Of a stretch of 64,000 nt of DNA, positions 47,979 to 62,454 are shown piece after piece (the first letter of the stretch is position 1; every line of letters starts with the position of its first letter). The notes beneath the pieces are model-generated. The model searched no databases. It was not told where the DNA came from and saw only the letters and a program-made list of their open reading frames with translations. The translations under genes and the position numbers were made by a program. Location of the stretch: NCBI GenBank assembly GCA_001632435.1, contig KV423961.1:1-64000 (forward strand), read 5' to 3'. The stretch is from Calocera cornea HHB12733. Lineage: Eukaryota > Basidiomycota > Dacrymycetes > Dacrymycetales > Dacrymycetaceae.

Positions 47979-50409
47979 CTACACAGCGGCTCCGTCGGGA
48001 ATAAGGCGAGTAATGACCCAGTTCTCGCGGGAGACCGTCTAGATGAATGTCAGCTATATGCGTATTGGTAAAGCGGAGTGCTTACTTCACCGCTGCTGAG
48101 GTGGAAGGATGATGTGCTGCCTTCAACGGTGATCCTATATTTCCCAGCGACGTGCTGCAAGTATTGATTGAGCTCCTCGCCGTCAGCAAGCTGGAAAAGG
48201 TGTGAGTGTACCGTAGAAGATGGGACGGTGAGTTACATACAGAGTCGCTGCGAAGTAGACGCTGAAGAGTAGCAGTGTTATCTCCAAAGAGTTGGCGGCC
48301 GACAGCGTCAAAGGCGGTACACTTGAGAACACCGGTGCCGTCGTTGACGGTAATAGGAATGTTATATCTAAGAGTGGACAAGTTAGAATTTTACAGTAGT
48401 GGAAAGCGAATACATACACAAGTCTTGGCTTAGGGAACGTGGTGTTACAGGACGCGCATGACCATACACGATCTTGGATCTTTCGAGCGCGCTTGTTACA
48501 CTTAGGGTCGCAGCAAGCTTGATAGCATAGCTCCTTCGGGGATTGGATCTCAATTTCTCCGACGATAATGATAGGGTGAGGAGTGTCCAGCTTTACGAGG
48601 CCGTCTTTCAAAGCATCAGCTATAGTCATCTCAGAAACAGGTGCGGTGGTGTTGGTAGGTTGGTTGCTAGCAGCAGTGGACTGCCCAGAGAGAAGACGGA
48701 AGCGAGCGTTCTTGTTTTCTTCCCACCTAAAGACAGATTAGCTAGGCAGCAAGTACTACTTCAAGGCAGCGTACCAGTCGAGCAAGGCGATATGGTCAGG
48801 ATCTTCATCATCAAATACAATGTTCGTAGCTTTTGATTTTGTCATGAGGCTTGGGCCGTGACGATAGTCCCACTTGAGGCGGCGAATAGAAACGGCGCGG
48901 CCCGCCTGACCGACAACTTGGTGGAGATAAGGTTCAAAAGCGACGATGCGACCGATGGCTCCGGAGTAGTCTGCAACGAAAAACTCGATGAATGCGCATG
49001 CCTGCTAAGGTAGTTATTAGGAGAGAATAGGGTAATATGATGAAAGTGTACCTCTGTCTTTTCGTCTTGACCTGCGTCGTCATCATCCGCGTTCTTCGGT
49101 TTAAACTTAATCGGCTCTCCTACGGACACTATAATCCCGCGGATATCTGTAGGATTGTTAGAGGCGCGCCGCAAAGGATATATATGTAGGCATACCGCAC
49201 ATGTCGCCTTCACCCATTAGTGTGACGTGAGCAACATCGACGAACGAACCCCAAAGGCAAGGAATCGTATGGTCGTCGTCGACCTAAGGAAGAAGTCAGT
49301 ACGGAGCGACATTTATGGAGTAGTGCGCACGGGTTGGAATTGCGCGTTAGCATTGAATGTAAGCTGGTAGGGATGCGTAGTACTGTTGTATTTGTCCTTT
49401 GCCCTGAGAACGCCTGCGTTGTAGAAAGCGTAGACCTAAAAAAAGTAAGTATATGCGGTCTGATGAAGAAGTGGAGCTATACCTTGCCAACTTCCATATC
49501 GTCAGCCTTTTCGACAGCAGCGTTCCAGGCGACGATGCCCATATCACCCTGCGTAGAGGTCAGCAGATAATGCTAAGATTATGTGACGCTGGCGTACTGA
49601 AGCATCGTGAATGACGAAGAGTTGTCGGATGCCGGAGCCAGAGTCAGTGAAGTAAGGAGTTTTTTCCGAGCGCTTTGAAAGACGGGCGATCACGTAGAAG
49701 CTAGAGAAGCGTTAGTGGTAGTATTGAGATGTGCAAGGTACATACTTAGCAAGCGACTCGCTATTGATGTCAGCAATCTCGATGTATCTCGAGTTAAGAT
49801 CACTAGCGTGTTTGCCAGTAGCCTTCTGGATGCGACGATAGAATATAGGGATGTTCTCAGGAGGAGGGTCACCGTAATCGAGGCGTTCGAAGTAGACGTC
49901 ACCGATACGCCCCTTTCGGTTAGAATGGTCGTCGCAGAGAGCATGGACAAGTACGCGTGTGGAGAAGACTGAGGGATCGCCAACGATATCATCCTCTTGA
50001 TGGAGCACGCGCATCTTGAGGATGATTATCTTTCTAGAGACTTGATGAGATACTCTATGTTGAACAGTATACATGGTTACTTGCATTTTGCTGGTGGCGA
50101 TACCGACGCGTACGAAGTCTTCGATGCGCACGACGCTGTTGGTCTTTACCTCATCGCTGGTGACAAGGTGGTTGAGAGACGTGTCTAATATAGCTGTAAA
50201 GAAGCGATCGCTATCGCTGAGCTCGACGCTGGAAGGCGTTAGTGGAGGCGCATATATGAGGGTGGTACATACAAGTAACGATCGGGCTCGCAGTCGAGAT
50301 GACGCTTAGCCGGAGTAATCTTCAGCACTTGAACTTGGCAGGAGAAGTCGTTGACTTGTCCCAGTATCATAGTTTCTACCGCTCCAATACTAGGAGGTAA
50401 GCGAGTCAT
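47979..50409 (-). CDS. RPA1-like single-strand DNA-binding protein (Helitron-borne)
   Basis: Twelve exons: 50409-50273, 50228-49746, 49700-49598, 49548-49483, 49435-49331, 49283-49196, 49146-49052, 49004-48775, 48726-48418, 48367-48241, 48190-48086, 48038-47979 (635 aa). The fold order is that of the large replication protein A subunit. The N-terminal OB part has VQVLKITPAKRHL, FFTAILDTSLNHLV, NSVVRIEDFVRV and KIIILKMRVLHQED. DBD-A/B-like OB folds have GKVYAFYNAGVLRAKDKYNS, YQLTFNANAQFQP and DIRGIIVSVGEP. The C-terminal DBD-C has a zinc ribbon, CYQACCDPKCNK with RVWSCASCNTTFPKPRL, then YNIPITVNDGTGVLKCTAFD and GRQLFGDN. It ends with YRITVEGSTS. All splice phases agree and there is no stop, so it looks intact. 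It is diverged from host RPA1 and probably serves the element's rolling-circle replication. Confidence 0.85.
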
Positions 50410-51943: not shown

Positions 51944-53360
51944 TCAAGTGTAAAGGGGAGGTGCGGCAGAGCTACGGCGATGCAACGCGTTATTTAGTTC
52001 TCTGGAGATCGAAATAGGTCTCATAGGTAAGCCTTCGTGTAGGAGGCGCAAGAGCTCCGGAACGTCAGCTTCACTTAGCTTGCCATAATCTAAACACTGG
52101 TTGTCTGGTCTCTCCCAGTGCATATATCTCAATATAACCACTCCGCCAGACCAATGCTGTGCGAGAGAAGGGTGCATATTCTGGTTATTTAGCCGGTTTG
52201 GTGTTTTTGTTGTGCGGTGTTCTCCTATCACGTGATAATGCAGCGTGTTTGATGGGACAGCGCCAGCTGTGGCGTGTATCGTGGCCATGTAATCGGCGTA
52301 GGGGCCTTGTAGAAAAGCGTGTAAAGGTAACGAGTATAGTTGAGTGGCGTCTTTTGGCGTCAGAAGGAAAGTAAAAGGGATTGTTGTGATGGTGTGTTGG
52401 CCGAAGAAGGGGACGTAGAGAATGGGCAGCGAAACGGTAAACTTCCGCTGGTTCGGCTAAGTATGGTTAGTGTAAGTAGCTCATTGGTTATTCTGATACG
52501 CACGGTAGGAAGTAAGAGACTAGTACGTCGAATAATGATATTTTGTAGTACTTCGTATCTTACTGCGCCTTCGGCTGTGACCTTGAGAGGGTCGTTAGTA
52601 ATAGTAATGTGGAATGTGTGTCGGTGCGTACCGCATCTTTCCCATTCTCCACGAAAATGTTAGAGAATCGTGACAAAGCGTCGGTAGGCATGTGAAGGAG
52701 CTCTGGTGCTGAAGTCGGAGGCGAGCGATGTAGAGCATCGCTGATGCTATCTGTTGTGGAGACGGAGCACGCGCGTGGACCTTGTCCTAGTAAGTTCATT
52801 ATTTCGACGGTGTCATCCGGTGCGATGTTGCTGTAATCGAGACACAGGGCGTCTGTGCGTTGCCAGCGCATGTAACGGAGGACAATAACGGCGCCGTTCC
52901 ATTCCGACATTAACGATGGTGGTGGTGGAGTAGTTTTGCCGCTGGCTATAACGAGGTCGGTTGGCGGAGTAGTCCGGTGTTCACTTATGATGTGATAATG
53001 CCGCGTGCGCTTTCTATCGGTGGAAGCGTCTAGAGTGTGTGACGTGGCGATGTAATCTGCATAAGGACCTTGGATGTGAGAGTCTAGTGGGAGAGAGTAC
53101 AGTTGCGGCGCTTTGTCGGGTTTGAGTTCGAAGGTGAAAGCTGGATGCACCGAGATGGCGGACCCATGTAGCGGCACGTATAGTGCAGCGAGGCGAACGG
53201 TAAAGAACTTAGCGGTAGGCTCCGATACGCTGATTAGAGTCGAACTGGACCTATGCGGAAGATCACGTACATAGGGTATATATTTGGCAGGATGTCCTAT
53301 CTTGACGGATTTGATTATCTGGAATCGGATCATGTCCTTAGATAGTAGCTGCGATGCCAT
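51944..53360 (-). CDS. Two-copy 'HRTT' repeat-domain protein (novel family)
   Basis: Exons: 53360-52632, 52581-52504, 52456-51944 (439 aa; every exon is a whole number of codons). The protein consists of two tandem copies of a domain of about 200 residues. Copy 1: FFTVRLAALYVPLHG, APQLYSLPLDSHIQGPYADY, HYHIISEHRTT, AVIVLRYMRWQRTDALCLDY and ISDALHR. Copy 2: KFTVSLPILYVPFFG, ATQLYSLPLHAFLQGPYADY, HYHVIGEHRTT, GVVILRYMHWERPDNQCLDY and LNNALHR. The order and spacing of blocks agree. The pattern suggests beta-rich N-terminal and mixed C-terminal halves. I know no family with this signature. A single-copy relative lies on the other strand 580 bp away. Confidence 0.78.
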
Positions 53361-53942
53361 ATTAACACATAGCAGCACTTAAATGAGTATATCATACAGC
53401 GTCTGATTCATTGGCGACTCGAAGGATAATGTGATCTTTGGGGTGATTCGAAGATGGATCCATTGTCGTATCGCATCTGCAATGTCAGGATGACGCGTTC
53501 TTATATTGCATCTGACTCACAGGGTCCTGATTTATGCCTTTACGCTTGGAAGGGCGCTGCTGAATACAATGAGCCCAATTAGGAAAGCGAAGCGATTCTA
53601 CAGAGAAACAGCGATAGAAGCCGATTTGAGACAGACGCCACCGTACCTGATTTGCAGGCATTCTTAGGAAGAGACGTCAAGTGAGTTATGTCGGGCGAGT
53701 CTCAGAAGTGGACGGAAGCGATGCAGAGCAGGTCTGTTGATTAGAGCGCGAAGAGCTATAGACTAAATGGGCTGTCAACGGTCGCACAGCAAGGAACGTG
53801 AGGTGTTTGATTAATGTGAGGATTTCAGAGTGCGTTATATCGGGCGAAGCCAAATAATTTACTTCCGTTTACGGTAGCTGCCGTACAGCCTCAGGATGTG
53901 CTGCGAATCGGATAGCTCAGTCACATCTTCCCCGCATACGCC
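53361..53942. other. Divergent promoter region of the two repeat-domain genes
   Basis: The two- and one-copy genes are transcribed away from each other from this 582-bp stretch. Within it the word TTATGT/ATATCGGGCGA is repeated: GTTATGTCGGGCGAGTC at 53,684 and GTTATATCGGGCGAAGC at 53,833. No coding frame is supported. Confidence 0.5.
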
Positions 53943-54629
53943 ATGTCCATAACTACAGCATCTGCGATGATGACTATCGTCGACAATACTGCGGGCGAGT
54001 CTTACGAGGTATCTACAAGGCCTATCCTTTGGAATTGTACTGATTTACGCTTAGGGTGCGGGCAGCGATATTTGGTACGGGGTGGTGAAGTCAGTGGTGG
54101 TAGCGCGACAACCTTTAGTGGGTAGTGAGGTGCGCATAACAATTGTGCAGTTCTATTCTTACTAAATATTGTTCAGGTTAACTTGCCTTTCGTTGAGGTA
54201 CCTACGCGGGCGTTGTACTTCTCCGGCAGTGAGAAAGCGCCGGCGCTAATACGGCTGGCGGTATTTTACTCGATATCGGAAGCGCAGACGTGTAACGTTC
54301 ACGCGATAGACGTTCGACCGTGGTTGGAGGGGCCTTTTTCCGTGGCAACGGTGTACTGCAGCAACGAACAACGGACTATCGAGTACCTCGTAGTACAACA
54401 ACATCGTACCACAAGTGAAACTGCGAAGTTGGGTGCGGTGCGGAGTATTGTGCTCCGGAGGCGTAGCGGCGTAGGGGAAGACCAAATGGAGTTTGGTCAT
54501 GTAGGTCAAAGCGAGGTAGAGGGCATTGTGCATGCTCTGCAGGAGAGCGACAGACTAGCCGTACCGATAACGGTCGATAGCGATCTGTACTCCTTGTTAC
54601 ATAGGGAAGCTTCGCAGCTATTGACATGA
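53943..54629 (+). CDS. One-copy 'HRTT' repeat-domain protein (novel family)
   Basis: Exons: 53943-54008, 54055-54129, 54177-54629 (197 aa). It aligns with each copy of the neighbouring two-copy protein: LPFVEVPTRALYF corresponds to FFTVRLAALYV, the WLEGPF block to HIQGPY, YLVVQQHRTT to YHIISEHRTT, RSIVLRRRSGVGEDQMEFGH to VIVLRYMRWQRTDALCLDY, and LYSLLHR to ISDALHR. The CLDY motif is changed to MEFGH. It is the only gene of the element on the plus strand. Splice phases are all zero and there is no stop, so it appears functional. The function is unknown. One domain versus two suggests that the active form might be a dimer, but this is speculation. Confidence 0.75.
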
Positions 54630-54670: not shown

Positions 54671-55777
54671 TCAGAAACTGTATTCTACGCCTTCTTCATC
54701 GTCTACCTCGTCGCCATGACTAAGGAAATAGACGGCATTCAGTTGATAAGCTATACGATATTCTCGGTCCCTCTTTTCCTTTTCAGCATCACTATTATCG
54801 AACCGCTTGCGAATGCGGCATTCTAACATCACCAAATCACCTCTTTTAACCGTGCTACAGTTGATAAGTGGCATGTCTTTCTTCTTCTTCATCACTGAGG
54901 TGGCGTCATACACGCCTTTGAATTCGGAAGGCTTTGACCCGGTTGAGTAAGTGAGATCAGTGGTGAAGAGTACATACCGGCTTTGGAGAATTGTATTTCT
55001 TTTAGAATCTACTAGCTAGTACTGTACCAAAGGGATTTAGCTCTTGTGCTAGAGACGATTTAGAATTAAAGCAGCGCAGATGTGAAAGAGACAAACCTGT
55101 TGGTGGCTTAGAGTAGGTGTTGTATACTTTCGTTGCTGCTGTAATATCTTCTCTAAATAAAGGCTTAATACTGACATATACCTGGTCAGCCCAACTATCG
55201 TCGTCGTCTTTAAAGTGCGTTGTTACGACACGACCGAGGATCCAAGTTAGTATCGGAGTGTTATCCGGTCTGACTAGGAAATTTGACATGTCGATTGCCT
55301 GGTTAAAACCAAAGCGTAGATTAAAGGGAATCTTGGTTATGTAGTAGACACCTCTGACGGGATCTGCATACTCTCGCATGCCTAGTACTCGACTAGCATC
55401 GGTGAGTATTACGCTATACAGTACCGCGAGCAAGTGAACGGGGACTAACGCTCGGAGGATGGGATCCATATCCGCGTCTGGCACGACGGGCCCTGCATCA
55501 TCAGATGGGGGAGAAGAACGCGATGGCACATCATTGGTGCGCTCAGTATCACTAGTGTGATCACTTGCAAGCGATGCGTCTATAAATTCATCTTCAATAT
55601 GCTCAATGCTATCGTCAGGTATAACTTCGTTTTCTATGTCCACTTTCGATCTAAGATAAACGTTTAGTAAGTTAGATCAAAAGGTGTAAAGGCTCGAATT
55701 TACTTCTGCCTTTTAAAAGCTACGTCGTCGGGGAAACTAACAGACTTGCGTTTGGGTGCTCTGGTGGATTTGGACAT
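54671..55777 (-). CDS. Helitron accessory ORF, 304 aa (unrecognised)
   Basis: Exons: 55777-55704, 55650-55097, 55048-55023, 54931-54671; the lengths sum to 305 codons, which supports the model. The N-terminus MSKSTRAPKRKSVSFPDDVA is basic and resembles a nuclear localisation signal, then an acidic stretch follows (IPDDSIEHIEDEFIDAS). The centre has MDPILRALVPVHLLAVLYSV, PVRGVYYITKIPFNLRFGFN and ILGRVVTTHFKDDDDSWADQ. The C-terminal part has MPLINCSTVKRGDLVMLECR. The last block has the look of a small beta-barrel (TVKRGDLVMLECRIRKRF), but this is not proof of an OB fold. A 26-nt exon precedes the last one. Confidence 0.6.
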
Positions 55778-58700
55778 GGTAACAAAAACCCAGCGGTACT
55801 CTCGCACTATTTATACCCTCTGAGTATTGTGCGTGAGTCAGAGGAGGTAAGCGTTGTGGCTGTATATGAAGGCGCTGCGACTATGTGAAGGCGGTGTTCT
55901 GCCGCGCCTCAGACTACGCGACTCAGAACGACTACATGCGTAGTCATCACCCGTCAGCTTTCGTGTTGTATGTATCGTTTCCGAGTTTCAGAACTAAGGC
56001 TGTGTAGGCGGTCCATTTCTTCACGTAACTCGGAGGGCTGGCGACCATAGAGGTGGCGAGTAGTAAAGTGCCTCAGAATGGCAACTCCATCAAGCCTGCG
56101 AACCCTCGATAGCATAACATATACGCTTTGGGTACTACGGCAACCCGCGAGATCAACGATCGCTGTCTCTAGAGAGCGCCCTTGGCTCTTGTAGTCTGTA
56201 TAGCAGTATGCTGGTACTAAGGGGAGATGCCGTCGTGTGATAGTATACCGCATCGTTCCTCCGTCCAAGGATGTAGCAGTATAATGGAAAGTAGATTTAA
56301 CAGGCTGTATGCAGATCGTCTGGGGGGGTAAATCACAGTGTTGCGCATATACGCTAGGTATATGTACAAAGACCGCTTCAGCATATCGTCTGCAGTCTTC
56401 ACCTAAGTTGTAGCGAACGCCAACTACTGTTCCGGTAGAGCCGTTCACAATGCTTCTTGACGTAGCGAGGTTCTCAGTAATCATTACACGCATACCCACA
56501 AACAGTGGTATGTATGGCAGTGCATCCTCTGTTTTGCGGGCATCTAGTCGCCAAAGTCTGTGTTGAAGTTCCCCTGAAAGTCGTTGCCGTTTGAGAAAGT
56601 CCTCTGCGAAATATAGTATGAGATCTTCTTGTATGCGACTTGCGTGGCTTCTCGCCCTGACTATATTAACGGCGTTGCGTAGCTTTCGTGTGGCTACGAT
56701 AACAGGTGAGTCTTCAAACTTAGTGTTGATAGTAGGATCTTCTTTAGACATGTTATCCAATAACCTTGAATATAGTACATCGTAGTCTGATTCTTCATAA
56801 TTATCGCCATTGCCAAGTTGATTTGCGGCGTGAGGTGCCGTACCCTTCCAACTACACCCGTTTCTGAGCCTGGCTAGTAAGTTTGACCACCTGGCATCTT
56901 CAGCTTGTCTTATATTATGCCTCAGCAGCACTGCCTCATTTAATTGTCGCCAGAGTAGTGCACCGTCGAGCGCAGTTTGCCCCCCAATACGTTTCGATAC
57001 CCGACTGCCTATTTGCTTGACGAGCTGGTGACTATATAGGCAGAGTGATCCAAACGGCTTGAGTTGTCCGAAGTCCCCAGTATAAATCACATTGATTCCT
57101 CCACACAACACCTCAGCGTTGGTACCCTTCCCTAGTGAGATTCGCGAAGATATTTCGCTGAGGAGTTGCGCCGATAGCATAGATACCTCATCTATGATAA
57201 GCCATCGTATCCCGCGCCATATAGAATCCAGTATCGATAAGTTCGCCTTAATTCCGCGTTTTGAAGGCAATAGTGTAAGTGCGTGTATAGTAAAGCCGCC
57301 AATAAGTACAGCTGCAGCACCTGTGGGCGCTGACAGTAGAAGCGTGTTGACTAACTGAAGTCTGCGAAATAGTTGCTGAATACACTTGATTACATGACTT
57401 TTACCGGTACCAGCGCCGCCGCCTACGTGAAGGAAAGCTGATTATTCTTCTTGCCAGTTAAGTAATCGGCTACGATCCTTAGTACAAGACACTGTTCCTT
57501 GTTGTCTTGTAAGTTGTTCTCCTGAATAACGGCCTCTACAGCTGTGTCTACAGTAGCCTCGTTCGTGTCGATCATGTCCTCTATAGTGTCGGCAGCGGGC
57601 AGAATATAGTCTGGGAGAGCGTATGCTGCCAAGTTTTCGGGTGGTTGGTATTGTGTATCCTCGGAAGTACTATAATCTTCCCGCAAAGGTCTTTTATCGG
57701 CCCTCCATTTGCTTAACTGGTCGTTATAGCTCTTCAGCGTTGGATGATCGTTATCCTCCAATTGATGAATGCCTAATAAAGCAAGGTCTTCCACACCTGA
57801 TGTAGTAATAGAGCTGGCGGCAGAGTTAAGAGCGGATACCGCGCCTAAAGACGCTCGTGTCGGTAAGAGGAACATTGCGTCGCTCAGTTCCATAGGGTCA
57901 TTCAGTTCCTCGCCGCGGACGTCTAGCTGCGCATCATCTACTAAGTGCTCTTCCAGTGTATCCAAGTCCTCTTCGTTTGGTTCAGTGGCAAGAACGCCTA
58001 TTCTAGATTTCCTGAGTTTACCACGTAGGTCGTTATCACGGGCTTCTTTGCATTGGTTGAGTACGTCCATGTTAGACATTATACGGATGTGCCGAGCAGT
58101 AAAAGTGTAGCTGTCAAACGCAGCGGCCCACGTAGAGTATGCGCCTAATAAGTCATACAGTGTACGCCACGGCTTGAAGAGGATAACCATAGCACGGCAC
58201 CAGCCTTCGCGCTCTTCATCAGTTACACCTTGCCTAGGAAGTGTAGATCCTATGACGGTCGGCACATATTCTTTACGCACTCTCCTTAGACAATGCGTTT
58301 TCGCTTGCGGGTGGGAAGGCGCGAAGCAATAATTGGGTTCCGCTACTTCAGTGTAGTTGTTCACTAGCACACTTTTTGGAATGGCTCTCTTTTCGGTATA
58401 GGCGACAAAGTCCCATAAACACAGGTCACTATATTCCGCGTGCTCTGGCCGATAGATGTAGTCCTGAGCTTGGCTAGAGACTGAGACAGTGCCCGCTATG
58501 ATATTAAGCGTTAAATCAGCAGCGTCTAATTGAGTCTCATCCGCAGTAGTGCGCCAGCACGTCATTATATCTTCAACGTCGCCATCAGAAGGCGCATCCA
58601 GTAAAGCCTCTTCCATGTTAGTGATGAGTCTACTGAACTGGCCCCATTGGAGGTTTCGGTACTCATGCGTGGTATAGTGATCGCCGCCGCCCACATAGTA

Positions 58701-59216
58701 ACTCATGATTTGTTGATGCGACATCTCCTGACGCGCCATCATGCGGTTGACCATTTTATTCACTAAGCTCCTACACTCCACAGATTCGGTTACTTCCTGT
58801 TGATCATCGTACTTCTCCCCGTTTTTTTGAATAGCGTAAATGAGAGCGGTGAGTCCAGCGTGCACTTTTAGGGATGACTTGGTTATGTAGTCCGTGATGT
58901 AATAGAGAGCAGCCTTTGCAGCCTCGCCAGAACCAATATACTGTACGTCCATATTGCACTTGAAAAGAAACATAATTATGTCGTTATACTCATTCACCCG
59001 CGGATGCAGACGCCGCAGTAGAATGCTACCACTGTCTTCGTCAATGCTAGTAGTGGCTCTCGTTGTTCCATCGATGCGCATACGACATTTGCTATCAGTG
59101 CGCTCTTCGTTTGCCTTTAGGTGTATCCAGCACCCAGCACGGTGTTCATGCCAATTATTTCTGATCACGAGGTCACTAACGTGCTTCTTGAAGGCGGCCG
59201 CTGTCTGCACCACTCA

Positions 59217-59872
59217 GTTTAGGACTGTACGGAGTCCGTCTGAATGGGCAATCCGAGGGCGTCGTATTCCGTGAAGTCGTCACAGGTCCGGAAGGGTATT
59301 CCGGAGTCGGAATAGCAAACGGGATAGGTGTAATTAGTTAGGAAGGTCCGGAATAGAGTGTAAAGTGTAGGGAGCGNNNNNNNNNNNNNNNNNNNNNNNN
59401 NNNNNNNNNNNNNNNNNNNNNNNNNNNNNNNNNNNNNNNNNNNNNNNNNNNNNNNNNNNNNNNNNNNNNNNNNNNNNNNNNNNNNNNNNNNNNNNNNNNN
59501 NNNNNNNNNNNNNNNNNNNNNNNNNNNNNNNNNNNNNNNNNNNNNNNNNNNNNNNNNNNNNNNNNNNNNNNNNNNNNNNNNNNNNNNNNNNNNNNNNNNN
59601 NNNNNNNNNNNNNNNNNNNNNNAGAGTCTTCGCCCGTGAACCCGTCGGGTGCGTTCCGTCGTATACGCCATTCCGAGAGGGTTCCGTGACCGGAACGGCC
59701 ATACGGAATAAACCCCTCAAACCCGGAATTGGCCGACGGACCGGAAAGCGAAGCAGGGCAAGTCCGAAAGGTGTCCGGACTTCCGGTGCCGTGTCTCCGG
59801 AAGGCCGGAACGCGAAAAATTGGGCCACAGTGACAAAGGGAACTGTACACCGCGAAGTCGGGCGGGTTTAGG
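59217..59872. mobile_element. Small insertion within RepHel, flanked by GTTTAGG
   Basis: The 7-bp word GTTTAGG occurs at 59217-59223 and again at 59866-59872 and probably is the target-site duplication. The 642 bases between are unlike the surrounding gene: they are rich in TCCGGA/CCGGAA words (about a dozen copies) and contain no gene. Both edges contain ACTGTAC (59224-59230 and 59842-59848). The centre is unresolved. The class of element is not recognised. Confidence 0.65.
59378..59622. other. Assembly gap (245 N)
   Basis: Run of 245 N inside the small insertion. The true length may differ, so reading frames spanning it are meaningless. Confidence 1.
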
Positions 59873-62454
59873 TTAATGATACTCGGCCCGGGTATTGTGC
59901 AAGGATCAATATCCGTTTTTGAGAGGCGCGGCTTTGTTAAGGGGCCGTTATCTTCTCTAACGACCGTAGTAGTACCAGGTAGTTCCGTATGAATCAGACG
60001 CTCTAACCAGCGGAACATGCTTGACTTAAACTGAACGTCACCAGATAAACGTTGGCGTAGAACATTAGGTGAAGGTTGACCTTCTATCCAGATGAGCATG
60101 TGGCAATGTAAGGTACCACGACCCTGTGCCTCAACCATGCCGTATAAGCCGGTGCAAGTGCCAAATAGACCTGCACCTTTCCCTATTCGCAGAACTATCT
60201 CTTGAAAGCGTTGCATTGTTTCGTTGAATACCGTTGCAGCCGCCGCTGGGTTTAGAGCAACCTTCATAGCTCTGGCGAACCTACTCTCACGCGTAGCACC
60301 TTTAGCAATGTCCGCAGGGTCCGCGTTTTCATTCAGAGCGAGTTGAAATAACAGCCCGTCAACATCGTTTGGTGTTAAGGTAAGAAAGAATGACGGGCAT
60401 CCTAGTTGGTGAATCAACGCACGAATCTCGTTTCGCCGACTGCGCTTATAAGCATCGCTGCCAGGCACGTCCCTGCGAAGCATGTGTATACGCCTCATGA
60501 CGCGAAACGCTAGCGCCTCCTGTTCAGATTCTGGCTTCGCCCAGCGATCATTTTCCAATCGCTTGGCTAAGTTAACCAGTACGTCCATATCGACGCTCTT
60601 GATACCCTCTACGATTCTACTGTGCGCTCCTTCCGGGATTCGGAAGCGCACTTCTCGAATAGCGTGCCGCTTTTGCAGTATACTATGAAAGACAAAAGCG
60701 AATGTAGGATCCTTTTGGAAACGGCGATCAGCCAGGCGTAGTAAATGAGTGAGTTGTTTCTTCATTGAGACCACTTTCCTTCGACGCGGATCGTCGAAGC
60801 CACCTAGGCCAAACGGATCAAGGTGGGGGAACATCCACGTTAGAGTGTACTCGTTGCGTAGGTCTTGGATAGCTCGGTTTCCACGCCGGGATAGGAGGAA
60901 CGCCCCTTCCTTATCCAAACAATGTGCTAATGCTTCCGCTTTCATAGCGCGGTAGTTATTAGCTGTACGAACGTCCGTAGCGTAGCCAGACGCTTCGATA
61001 AGGAAGTCGCCTGGACTGATACGACTGTCCTGAAATGAATTGCGGTCAGACACGTCTGACTCTGCCGCTATCTGGCCGTCATCCAACTGGACATGGCCTA
61101 TCTCCATGGAAGGGAGAACCACACTGTCGCTACCTTCCCTTTGACAGGCACCAAATAGAGCGTCGAAGTTAGCTTGAGAAAAACGCGCTCCTGTAGGAAA
61201 GTCCTCTGTTTCGCAAGTGTATGCTTTATTTCTTTCGAGGAGGAATTTTATCAGCGTACGCACAATACTTGCACTCGCTTTGACTGGCTCCACCCGGCGC
61301 AGTACTTCAGCAGTTGGTCGTTCTCTACTGGCAAAAACAGCCACAAAGCTATCACATATTTCATCAACAGGTGGCGGTAGTATATTGCTGAGGACTGCGT
61401 TGTCTTGCGGTAAAATAAGAACATTTCCTCTACTGTAGCGTTGCATTCCCTCTACTCCGCTCCGGTAAAGGCGACTCTCAGGGTTATCAAAGTAGCGAAA
61501 GCAAATTTTACTCGCTGAACACCGAGCCACAAGACGACGATCTACAAACGTAGATTGTGCAAAGGCTTTCTTCACGTCAGGGGGTACGTGCTCGAACGCG
61601 TAGTAGAATCCGTTAGCTAGTGCAAGGCTAGGTAGCTCTCCTCTACATAATGCGGCGTTGCACGTAGAGCATAGCTGCGCATGTCCTACGCGAGCGTCCG
61701 TGTCTGAGAGACCGCGCGGGTCCAAGATTGCCCAATCATACGCGTCGAGTGCATAACCTAGCGGCATCAATTCCCGTGGTATGTGCCAATTTTGCAGCAA
61801 GGTAAAATCGATGTGAGAGACCGGTGTGGGTTTAAGTCGAACAGTCGCTACCGCTTCGGCACATACTGCGCAAACCCCATGCAATAGTTGCTCTATCGTG
61901 GTTGCCGCTTCATAGTCACGGATTATCTTGTTGATCAGCTGCGCGTCATATACTGGAGGAAATTCTGTCGATTCCTCTGACACGTTAGTATATGGTGCAG
62001 TACAGCCATCACTTCCAATCGCATCCAGCATGTCGAGAGACTCTAGTCGTCTCTTCTTAGGCACACGGAGATTTAAAGTCGCCTGAGCACGTCCCATTCC
62101 TTCATACGCTCGATCGCGCCTCTTAAGCTTGAAGTGCCATAAGAGAACCTGGGACTCTGAGCGCAACAGCTGCATCACTATAGCATGTTTTGTCATAGAA
62201 GCGAAGATTCGTTGCTGTATGCACGATGCGACGAGCAGTAGATCGGCTTTGCGGAAGAAGTCATATGATGTGAGCAGTCCGGCAACCGTAGCTCTTAGCA
62301 GTAGAGTATCCTCGTAGACCGATAGCGTGCTCAAATCTATCGAGACACAATATACACCGCGAAACTCGTATGACCTATTCAAGTCGCCCGTAGGAAACTT
62401 CGCTTCTCCATAACAAACGAGGTTGTTCACGTAGTCGAGCGTTCCGATAAGCAT

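What the first reader, a model, noticed from the sequence alone, without database searches (positions are those of the whole stretch)
51944..54629. Undescribed repeat-domain family ('HRTT') carried by a Helitron: one two-copy and one one-copy gene, divergent
Three copies of an unrecognised domain of about 200 residues are present. Seen in the sequence: conserved blocks [FV]xVxLxxLYV, QLYSLPLxxxxQGPYADY, HYH[IV]IxEHRTT, VI[LV]RYMxWxR, CLDY and a C-terminal ALHR. They occur in the same order in two tandem units of one gene (51944-53360) and, more diverged, in an opposite-strand gene (53943-54629). All exons are in phase and free of stops, while the element's own Rep-helicase is dead, so selection may be keeping these genes. 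I know no domain with this signature. Inference: an accessory factor of Helitron transposition, regulation or host interaction.
Basis: partly seen in the sequence, partly recalled or inferred. Interest (0 to 1): 0.88.

Follow-up and report, generated by a model that had tools for sequence, protein, structure and literature searches.

The report
New gene family in fungal Helitrons
A jumping gene of the Helitron type in a jelly fungus carries a small family of protein-coding genes that resembles nothing catalogued, appears to have travelled with the jumping gene for a long time, and has been kept intact by natural selection, although what the protein does is still unknown.

Summary
A two-unit gene (53360-51944, minus) and a divergent one-unit gene (53943-54629, plus) encode three copies of one domain of about 200 residues, spliced in phase. 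Four single-unit copies lie elsewhere in it. In C23 and C67 both element ends are located and the gene is inside the Helitron; in C82 the right end is seen; in C45 the left end is seen and HRTT lies 3 kb downstream of the Rep-helicase. A relative occurs in Calocera viscosa (75% identity to the C45 copy; its setting not seen). For the four copies comparable, HRTT and helicase trees agree. dN/dS between single-unit copies (0.07-0.10) is like that of the helicase and RPA beside it. No match above cut-off in Pfam, NCBIfam, PHROGs or PDB sequences; two AlphaFold models were unusable (mean pLDDT 40 and 39). Best reading: a lineage-specific, selected accessory gene of a Helitron2-like transposon, probably a non-enzymatic binding subunit working with the element's RPA and a second orphan gene. 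That role is inference. Orphan genes in fungal Helitrons are known; this protein family is new as far as searched.

The parts
52632..53360 (-). HRTT two-unit gene, exon 1: all of unit 1 (no intron inside it) and the first residues of unit 2 (FSNIFVENGKDA)
   Evidence: unit 2 matches unit 1 at E = 1.4e-37
52582..52631 (-). intron 1, GTACGC...CTCAAG, 50 nt, phase 0
   Evidence: same place and phase as the intron I read in the single-unit genes
52504..52581 (-). exon 2 of the two-unit gene (VRYEVLQNIIIRR strand of unit 2)
   Evidence: the counterpart exon is present and joined in the same way in the deposited C. viscosa protein P0003
52457..52503 (-). intron 2, GTGCGT...ACTTAG, 47 nt, phase 0
51944..52456 (-). 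exon 3, body of unit 2, with stop codon
53361..53942 (.). 582-bp gap between the two divergent HRTT genes, possibly a shared promoter region
   Evidence: gene starts; promoter role is inference
53943..54008 (+). divergent one-unit HRTT gene, exon 1
54055..54117 (+). one-unit gene, exon 2 (WYGVVKSVVVARQPL)
54177..54629 (+). one-unit gene, exon 3, with stop codon
   Evidence: profile without it E = 2.5e-9
54674..55661 (-). gene X, second orphan gene of the element (matches at 55661-55089 and 54985-54674); 13 other contigs match it, 11 of them with a Rep-helicase of this family, plus C82 (HRTT copy) and C86 (no Rep-helicase match)
   Evidence: alignment A5
55996..62382 (-). remains of the Helitron Rep-helicase (62382-59878, 59195-57435, 57435-55996), interrupted by an insertion and a frame change; Helitron_like_N, DUF6570 and PIF1 matches
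48183..50305 (-). RPA1-like gene beside HRTT (Rep-A_N in ORF 49712-50305, Rep_fac-A_C in ORF 48183-48737)

Best explanation
HRTT is a lineage-specific accessory protein family of one clade of large Helitron2-like rolling-circle transposons in Calocera. The simplest history (inferred) is that it was present before the window's element and the C23/C67/C45 elements separated and was passed on with the transposase. In the window's element it was duplicated twice: into a divergent head-to-head gene pair, and within one gene into two tandem units. Selection on element copies has kept the coding sequence about as strictly as the helicase and RPA. Mechanism (inferred): the domain is a mostly beta, non-enzymatic binding module acting in trans in the element's nucleoprotein complex, alongside the element-encoded RPA1-like protein and gene X. 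The basic two-unit protein and the acidic one-unit protein may pair. Shown: gene structure by comparison, location inside the element in C23 and C67, purifying selection among single-unit copies, no known homologue found. Inferred: vertical history, beta-rich fold, binding role, partners.
For: Both element ends are located around HRTT in C23 and C67 and the right end also in C82; the right-end sequence is shared by three copies on three contigs with unlike flanks. HRTT and helicase trees agree for the four copies present in both: C23 with C67, then C45, then the window. C23-C67 dN 0.047, dS 0.506 over 218 codons. For the same pair exon 3 omega is 0.103, against 0.078 (helicase part), 0.127 (Rep part), 0.094 (RPA OB part) and 0.060-0.062 (gene X); differences by codon position 19, 3, 39. 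The three-exon phase-0 layout is shared by the plus gene, unit 2 (with the end of exon 1) and the single-unit genes as I read them, and by P0003 of C. viscosa, 75% identical to the C45 copy. Invariant positions of the eight-row alignment include R119, R147, H196, R197, T120, T121 and Y112 but no Asp, Glu, Cys or Lys, which speaks against a metal-dependent enzyme. Net charge at pH 7: unit 1 +2.5, unit 2 +3.7, plus copy -7.0.
Against: No fold: AlphaFold mean pLDDT 40.3 and 39.2; Foldseek on the second model gave nothing at E <= 0.001. The single-unit proteins are near neutral (pI 6.4-7.1), not typical of DNA binders. The group C140, C21, C118, C36, C79, sister to the window's element, has no detected HRTT, so this Helitron type can do without it. 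Profile comparison with gene X shows no relation. Four shared copies make the tree agreement a weak test, and IQ-TREE support for the single-unit clade is 69 and for unit 1 with unit 2 73. Four of the eight rows in the invariant count are exon 3 only, and R147 is not invariant in the other alignment. The deposited C. cornea models splice otherwise: P0001 keeps intron 1 and P0002 lacks exon 2. C45 and C67 need a non-canonical donor at intron 2 (GC and AT).
Confidence: 0.4

Rival explanations
1. HRTT is an anti-silencing or regulatory factor: it counters host silencing of the element (the role proposed for TET/JBP dioxygenases carried by fungal transposons including Helitrons) or sets the level of transposase expression.
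For: Not detected in a sister group, as expected of a helper rather than a core replication part; transposon-borne anti-silencing genes are proposed in fungal Helitrons (PMC12730594, passages read); divergent gene arrangement.
Against: No enzyme or known regulator domain; no direct evidence of any kind for an effect on silencing.
Confidence: 0.25
2. HRTT is a captured passenger gene that benefits neither transposition nor regulation, kept only by chance or recent spread.
For: Genes without known domains, treated as captured, are reported in Pleurotus HELPO1 Helitrons (PMC4289320, passages read). Patchy presence: found beside 4 of 16 Rep-helicases compared.
Against: dN/dS 0.07-0.10 between single-unit copies; binomial P = 6e-20 for the shortage of protein changes between C23 and C67; tree agreement at 52-55% helicase identity, on four copies only; no copy found away from Helitron parts in the genome.
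Confidence: 0.1
3. HRTT serves the host or the element outside transposition, for example in defence against competing elements or as a maintenance factor.
For: Lineage-restricted and patchy in related elements, as expected for arms-race genes.
Against: Low dN/dS argues against rapid adaptive change; no partner toxin or defence gene was recognised among the ORFs scanned with Pfam beside it; no defence library was run.
Confidence: 0.1
4. The similarity is an artefact: chance ORFs or a mis-spliced reading of a non-coding repeat.
For: Only three proteins, all from Calocera, turned up in two searches of 5.8 billion sequences, and two of the three are spliced otherwise than I read them.
Against: Protein-level selection in exon 3 alone, shared phase-0 splice places incl. 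P0003 of another species, profile and shuffle controls. Gene X, matched in 14 contigs of this genome, also returned no database protein, so rarity partly reflects sparse annotation of transposon genes.
Confidence: 0.01

Closest known systems
Extra ORF of FoHeli elements in Fusarium oxysporum, Helitron2-like (PMC5148889)
   Same: A second gene without known domains, said to occur only in Helitrons, in elements with asymmetric terminal inverted repeats (passages read).
   Different: It lies upstream of the transposase in opposite orientation (which FoHeli subgroup was not in the passage I saw); [quoted passage not shown] The single-unit HRTT genes lie downstream on the same strand, have introns, and sit with an RPA gene in an element of about 14.6 kb (C67). 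Sequence relation not tested.
capA, capA2, capB, capC of Pleurotus ostreatus HELPO1 Helitrons (PMC4289320)
   Same: Helitron-borne genes without conserved domains; three of the four are reported as specific to P. ostreatus (passages read).
   Different: Treated there as captured genes; nothing in the passages read on co-inheritance with the transposase. Sequence relation to HRTT not tested.
RPA-like genes of plant Helitrons (mentioned in PMC5148889 and PMC4289320, passages read)
   Same: A helper gene carried by the element; the window has an RPA1-like gene beside HRTT.
   Different: HRTT has no RPA or OB-fold match.
TET/JBP dioxygenases of fungal Helitron1 and Helitron2 (PMC12730594, passages read)
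   Same: Accessory gene carried by fungal transposons, proposed to counter silencing.
   Different: A known enzyme family; HRTT has no such match and no invariant acidic residue.

Membership tests
Helitron2-like transposon (the carrier) | Rep domain plus PIF1-type helicase in one protein | tested here: met
   PF14214 matches in 36 places of the genome incl. the window; PIF1 in the window; single open frames of about 1950-2030 aa holding both in several relatives. The window's own copy is interrupted
Helitron2-like transposon (the carrier) | Asymmetric terminal inverted repeat and terminal hairpin | tested here: met
   Left end CCCTGTCCAACAGAGTTGGTACAGG, a palindrome by eye (C23, C67; CTGG in C45); right end with GTTGGACAGG 19-20 bp inside the terminus in C23 and C67 (ATTGGACAGG in C82). 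Not found for the window's own copy. That this defines Helitron2 is from PMC5148889
Helitron2-like transposon (the carrier) | Rep-helicase groups with Helitron2 in a tree with reference elements | not tested
   No reference Helitron1 or Helitron2 protein was put in the tree
RPA / OB-fold single-strand binding protein | Sequence match to an RPA or OB-fold model | tested here: not met
   0 of 8 HRTT rows match such a model among the hits up to E = 10 (filters drop most weak hits)
RPA / OB-fold single-strand binding protein | OB fold | tested here: inconclusive
   AlphaFold models too poor
Gene X family of the same Helitrons | Profile similarity | tested here: not met
   hhalign probability 0.3%, 12 columns; only the first exon region of gene X, five sequences, was in the profile
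Any Pfam, NCBIfam or PHROGs family | Match above curated cut-off or at a significant E-value | tested here: not met
   Pfam: one of 8 rows, GldB_lipo E = 0.014, and Ubiq_DUF_assoc E = 0.079 for the unit 1 ORF, 13.3 bits against a cut-off of 24.3; NCBIfam none; PHROGs E = 0.5 in one row

The most novel reading that the evidence does not exclude
HRTT is a new nucleic-acid- or protein-binding fold that assembles as homo- or heteromers in a Helitron-encoded multi-subunit rolling-circle machine: Rep-helicase, RPA, gene X and, in a related clade, a Rad9-like clamp.
Probability: 0.22. Interest if true: 0.75.

Novelty: new variant of a known kind. Interest (0 to 1): 0.5.

Why it matters
Helitron transposition is usually treated as the work of one Rep-helicase protein (general knowledge, recalled). 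Here a fungal Helitron lineage carries further genes that, in the one closely related pair measured across genes (C67-C23), are under selection about as strong as that on the transposase, among them a protein family with no known relative. That gives named, testable candidates for helper factors of rolling-circle transposition.

Tried and rejected
Structure: two AlphaFold jobs (alignments A2 and A3) gave mean pLDDT 40.3 and 39.2; both show strands followed by helices, used only as a hint. Foldseek on the second model: best E 0.03 (PilZ domains), TM 0.12, treated as meaningless.

Searches without result: PDB sequences; viral contigs, one pattern; prokaryote genomes, the same pattern, 4 matches, none confirmed; the protein database with gene X (138 candidates, none at E <= 0.1); ends of the window's own element (only short inverted repeats that I take for chance). 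Helitron plus Calocera: 0 papers.

Considered and rejected: HRTT as a form of gene X; HRTT as a decayed captured gene (dN/dS). In one search the row 'NTase_a' was read in the wrong frame (omega 1.2, with stops); one search repeats it in frame (C67 vs C23 dS 0.447, dN 0.116); the wrong row is not used. In one search the script found splice solutions for one of four genes (C82), with an intron 2 that I did not keep. All four single-unit genes were spliced by hand and checked to be open. My intron 2 of C82 agrees with the deposited P0001; P0001 keeps intron 1 and P0002 lacks exon 2.

The name 'NTase-like' for the MAHPFDS gene, and the impression that a short gene head-to-head with HRTT in C67 and C82 resembles the N-terminus of RPA, are by eye or recall; Pfam gave no support. 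An earlier count said that the Rad9-like gene lies between Rep-helicase and gene X in three Helitrons; by coordinates that is so in C28 and C8 only, while in C62 gene X lies between. The same entry says that gene X is in all Helitrons of the family; one search shows 14 contigs and none of C116, C7, C125 and C84.

Full report
What the window is. The window is part of contig C48 of a 32.1-Mb genome in 302 contigs. Two database proteins annotated as Calocera cornea HHB12733 lie on contigs of 136,789 and 207,611 bases, exactly the lengths of C82 and C45 of this genome. I take the genome to be C. cornea, a jelly fungus (Dacrymycetes).

The observation. The two-unit gene runs from an ATG at 53360 to a stop at 51944 on the minus strand. 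Unit 1 lies wholly in exon 1; unit 2 begins at the end of exon 1 and is completed by exons 2 and 3, with phase-0 introns of 50 and 47 nt. The plus gene has three exons with introns of 46 and 59 nt, also phase 0. Unit 2 against unit 1 gives E = 1.4e-37. The plus copy is a distant member: with its protein as query the best pairwise E are 0.016-0.033, and units 1 and 2 are not listed at E <= 10. A profile made without it finds its ORF at E = 2.5e-9 among 1970 window ORFs, with the best of 1000 shuffles at about 1.

More copies. Searches of the whole genome with unit 2 and with the C45 protein (the plus gene added none) found HRTT in five loci: the window (three units) and single-unit genes in C82, C23, C45 and C67. 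I read each single-unit gene with the same three-exon layout, although C45 and C67 need a non-canonical donor at the second intron. The deposited C. viscosa protein P0003 is spliced at the corresponding positions; the deposited C. cornea models are not (P0001 keeps intron 1, P0002 lacks exon 2). In the database, the alignment search gave 1 hit at E <= 0.1 of 5472 candidates, and a single-sequence search gave 3 hits at E <= 10 of 82 candidates: two C. cornea proteins and one of C. viscosa, 75% identical to the C45 copy over 96%. As a calibration, a gene X exon gave no hit among 138 candidates although 14 contigs of this genome match gene X. So absence from protein databases partly reflects that transposon genes are poorly annotated.

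Location inside Helitrons. The genome has 36 matches to the Helitron Rep domain. The Rep-helicases of C23, C45 and C67 lie upstream of HRTT on the same strand: about 3 kb away in C45 and C67, and about 10 kb in C23, which carries extra sequence between 106253 and 112945. C23, C67 and C82 align through HRTT to one shared end: C23:121756, C67:about 131798 and C82:about 128431. That end reads TTGGACAGGTnnnCCCGGAGGGCCCTTC (one extra base in C67), and the flanks beyond it are unlike. The other end, CCCTGTCCAACAGAGTTGGTACAGG, is found about 0.3 kb beyond the open Rep frame in C67 and also in C23 and, with one change, in C45. CCTGTCCAAC at the left and GTTGGACAGG near the right form an asymmetric inverted repeat, the hallmark described for Helitron2 (PMC5148889, passages read). 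HRTT therefore lies inside the element in C23 and C67 with both ends seen; the C67 element is about 14.6 kb. In C82 the right end is seen and the other lies beyond the contig; in C45 only the left end is seen. For the window's copy I found neither end.

Co-inheritance. In a tree of 16 helicase domains, C45, C116, C23 and C67 form one clade (support 0.997) and the window's C48 is sister to C140, C21, C118, C36 and C79 (0.987). HRTT is found beside 4 of these 16: C48, C23, C45 and C67. C116 ends 138 bases beyond the helicase match and cannot be judged. The other 11 have no HRTT match in the genome searches (which score only the best candidates); for three of them (C140, C36, C28) I also searched 6 kb downstream with the profile and found none. 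The HRTT tree has the same order for the four shared copies, with C23 and C67 together, C45 outside them and the window's units apart. Four copies make this a weak test, and support is moderate (single-unit clade 0.93 and 69; units 1 and 2 as sisters 0.82 and 73; FastTree and IQ-TREE). The simplest history is presence in the common ancestor of both clades and loss in the C140-C79 group; a horizontal move into the window's element is not excluded. The C45 copy is closer to the C. viscosa protein than to the other C. cornea copies.

Selection. Between C23 and C67, dN is 0.047 and dS 0.506 over 218 codons; between C82 and C23 0.126 and 1.47; between C82 and C67 0.113 and 1.70 (Nei-Gojobori type counts). 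All other pairs, including every pair with a window unit, are at or near saturation in dS (above 2 or not computable), so selection on the window's own copies is not measured. For the C67-C23 pair, omega is 0.103 for HRTT exon 3, 0.078 and 0.127 for two parts of the Rep-helicase, 0.094 for an RPA OB part, 0.060 and 0.062 for two exons of gene X, 0.216 and 0.26 for two stretches of the MAHPFDS gene, and 0.283 for a coiled-coil gene. The binomial probability of so few protein changes in HRTT under neutrality is 6e-20. The C23 and C67 Rep-helicases each carry one in-frame TGA, so these copies may themselves be inactive; the selection pictured is that on their ancestors.

What the protein may be. 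No member matches Pfam, NCBIfam, PHROGs or PDB sequences above cut-off or significance. Structure prediction failed, I think for lack of relatives. Invariant residues across the eight rows of A4 are L, V, P, G, Y, R, T and H, including three arginines and one histidine, with no invariant Asp, Glu, Cys or Lys; in alignment A1 two of the arginines and the histidine remain. That fits a binding module better than a hydrolase or nuclease, with the caution that eight rows are few and four of them are exon 3 only. The single-unit proteins are near neutral, window units 1 and 2 are basic and the plus copy is acidic, which would suit pairing of the two divergent genes. My commitment, at 0.4, is a binding subunit of the element's transposition complex; a regulatory or anti-silencing role follows at 0.25.

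Compared with what is known. Orphan genes in fungal Helitrons are on record: an ORF without known domains that occurs only in Helitrons, in Fusarium (PMC5148889, passages read), and capA-capC in Pleurotus (PMC4289320, passages read). Enzyme genes such as TET/JBP also ride on fungal Helitrons (PMC12730594, passages read). HRTT is new as a protein family as far as these searches go: 0 papers hold both Helitron and Calocera, and a search for Helitrons with orphan-ORF phrases found 14 papers, 10 listed, of which I read passages of one. The library lacks most subscription journals.

Noticed in passing
L030:1726-3807 (C28, minus strand); also G000:C8:320409-320801 and G000:C62:100180-100776: A Rad9-like (PCNA-fold checkpoint clamp) gene, PF04139 E = 1.8e-17 in a 694-residue open frame in C28, lies within about 9 kb of both a Rep-helicase and a gene X match in three Helitrons of one clade (C28, C62, C8); it is between the two in C28 and C8, not in C62. 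Further matches in C27, C13 and C86. A Helitron carrying a sliding-clamp-like gene would be striking; element ends were not checked, and 4 papers hold Helitron and Rad9, seen as a listing only.
   Followed up: partly
window 55661-54674 (minus) and the places: Gene X, a second orphan gene, is matched at every HRTT locus and in C140, C21, C118, C36, C79, C62, C8, C28 and C86, with omega about 0.06 between C67 and C23; no Pfam match above cut-off for the pieces scanned.
   Followed up: partly
G000:C67:135462-136618, C23:116502-117059, C82:132837-133220, C45:4120-4476: A gene starting MAHPFDS, possibly nucleotidyltransferase-like by eye (no Pfam match), lies just downstream of HRTT in all four single-unit loci; weaker matches in C125, C86, C28 and C14.
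   Followed up: partly
window 59196-59877: Insertion in the Rep-helicase; 59377-59622 is masked and 59623-59854 is 95% identical to C45:81-312.
   Followed up: no
window 51709-50719 (minus): Open frames between HRTT and RPA without a Pfam match, perhaps another gene of the element.
   Followed up: no
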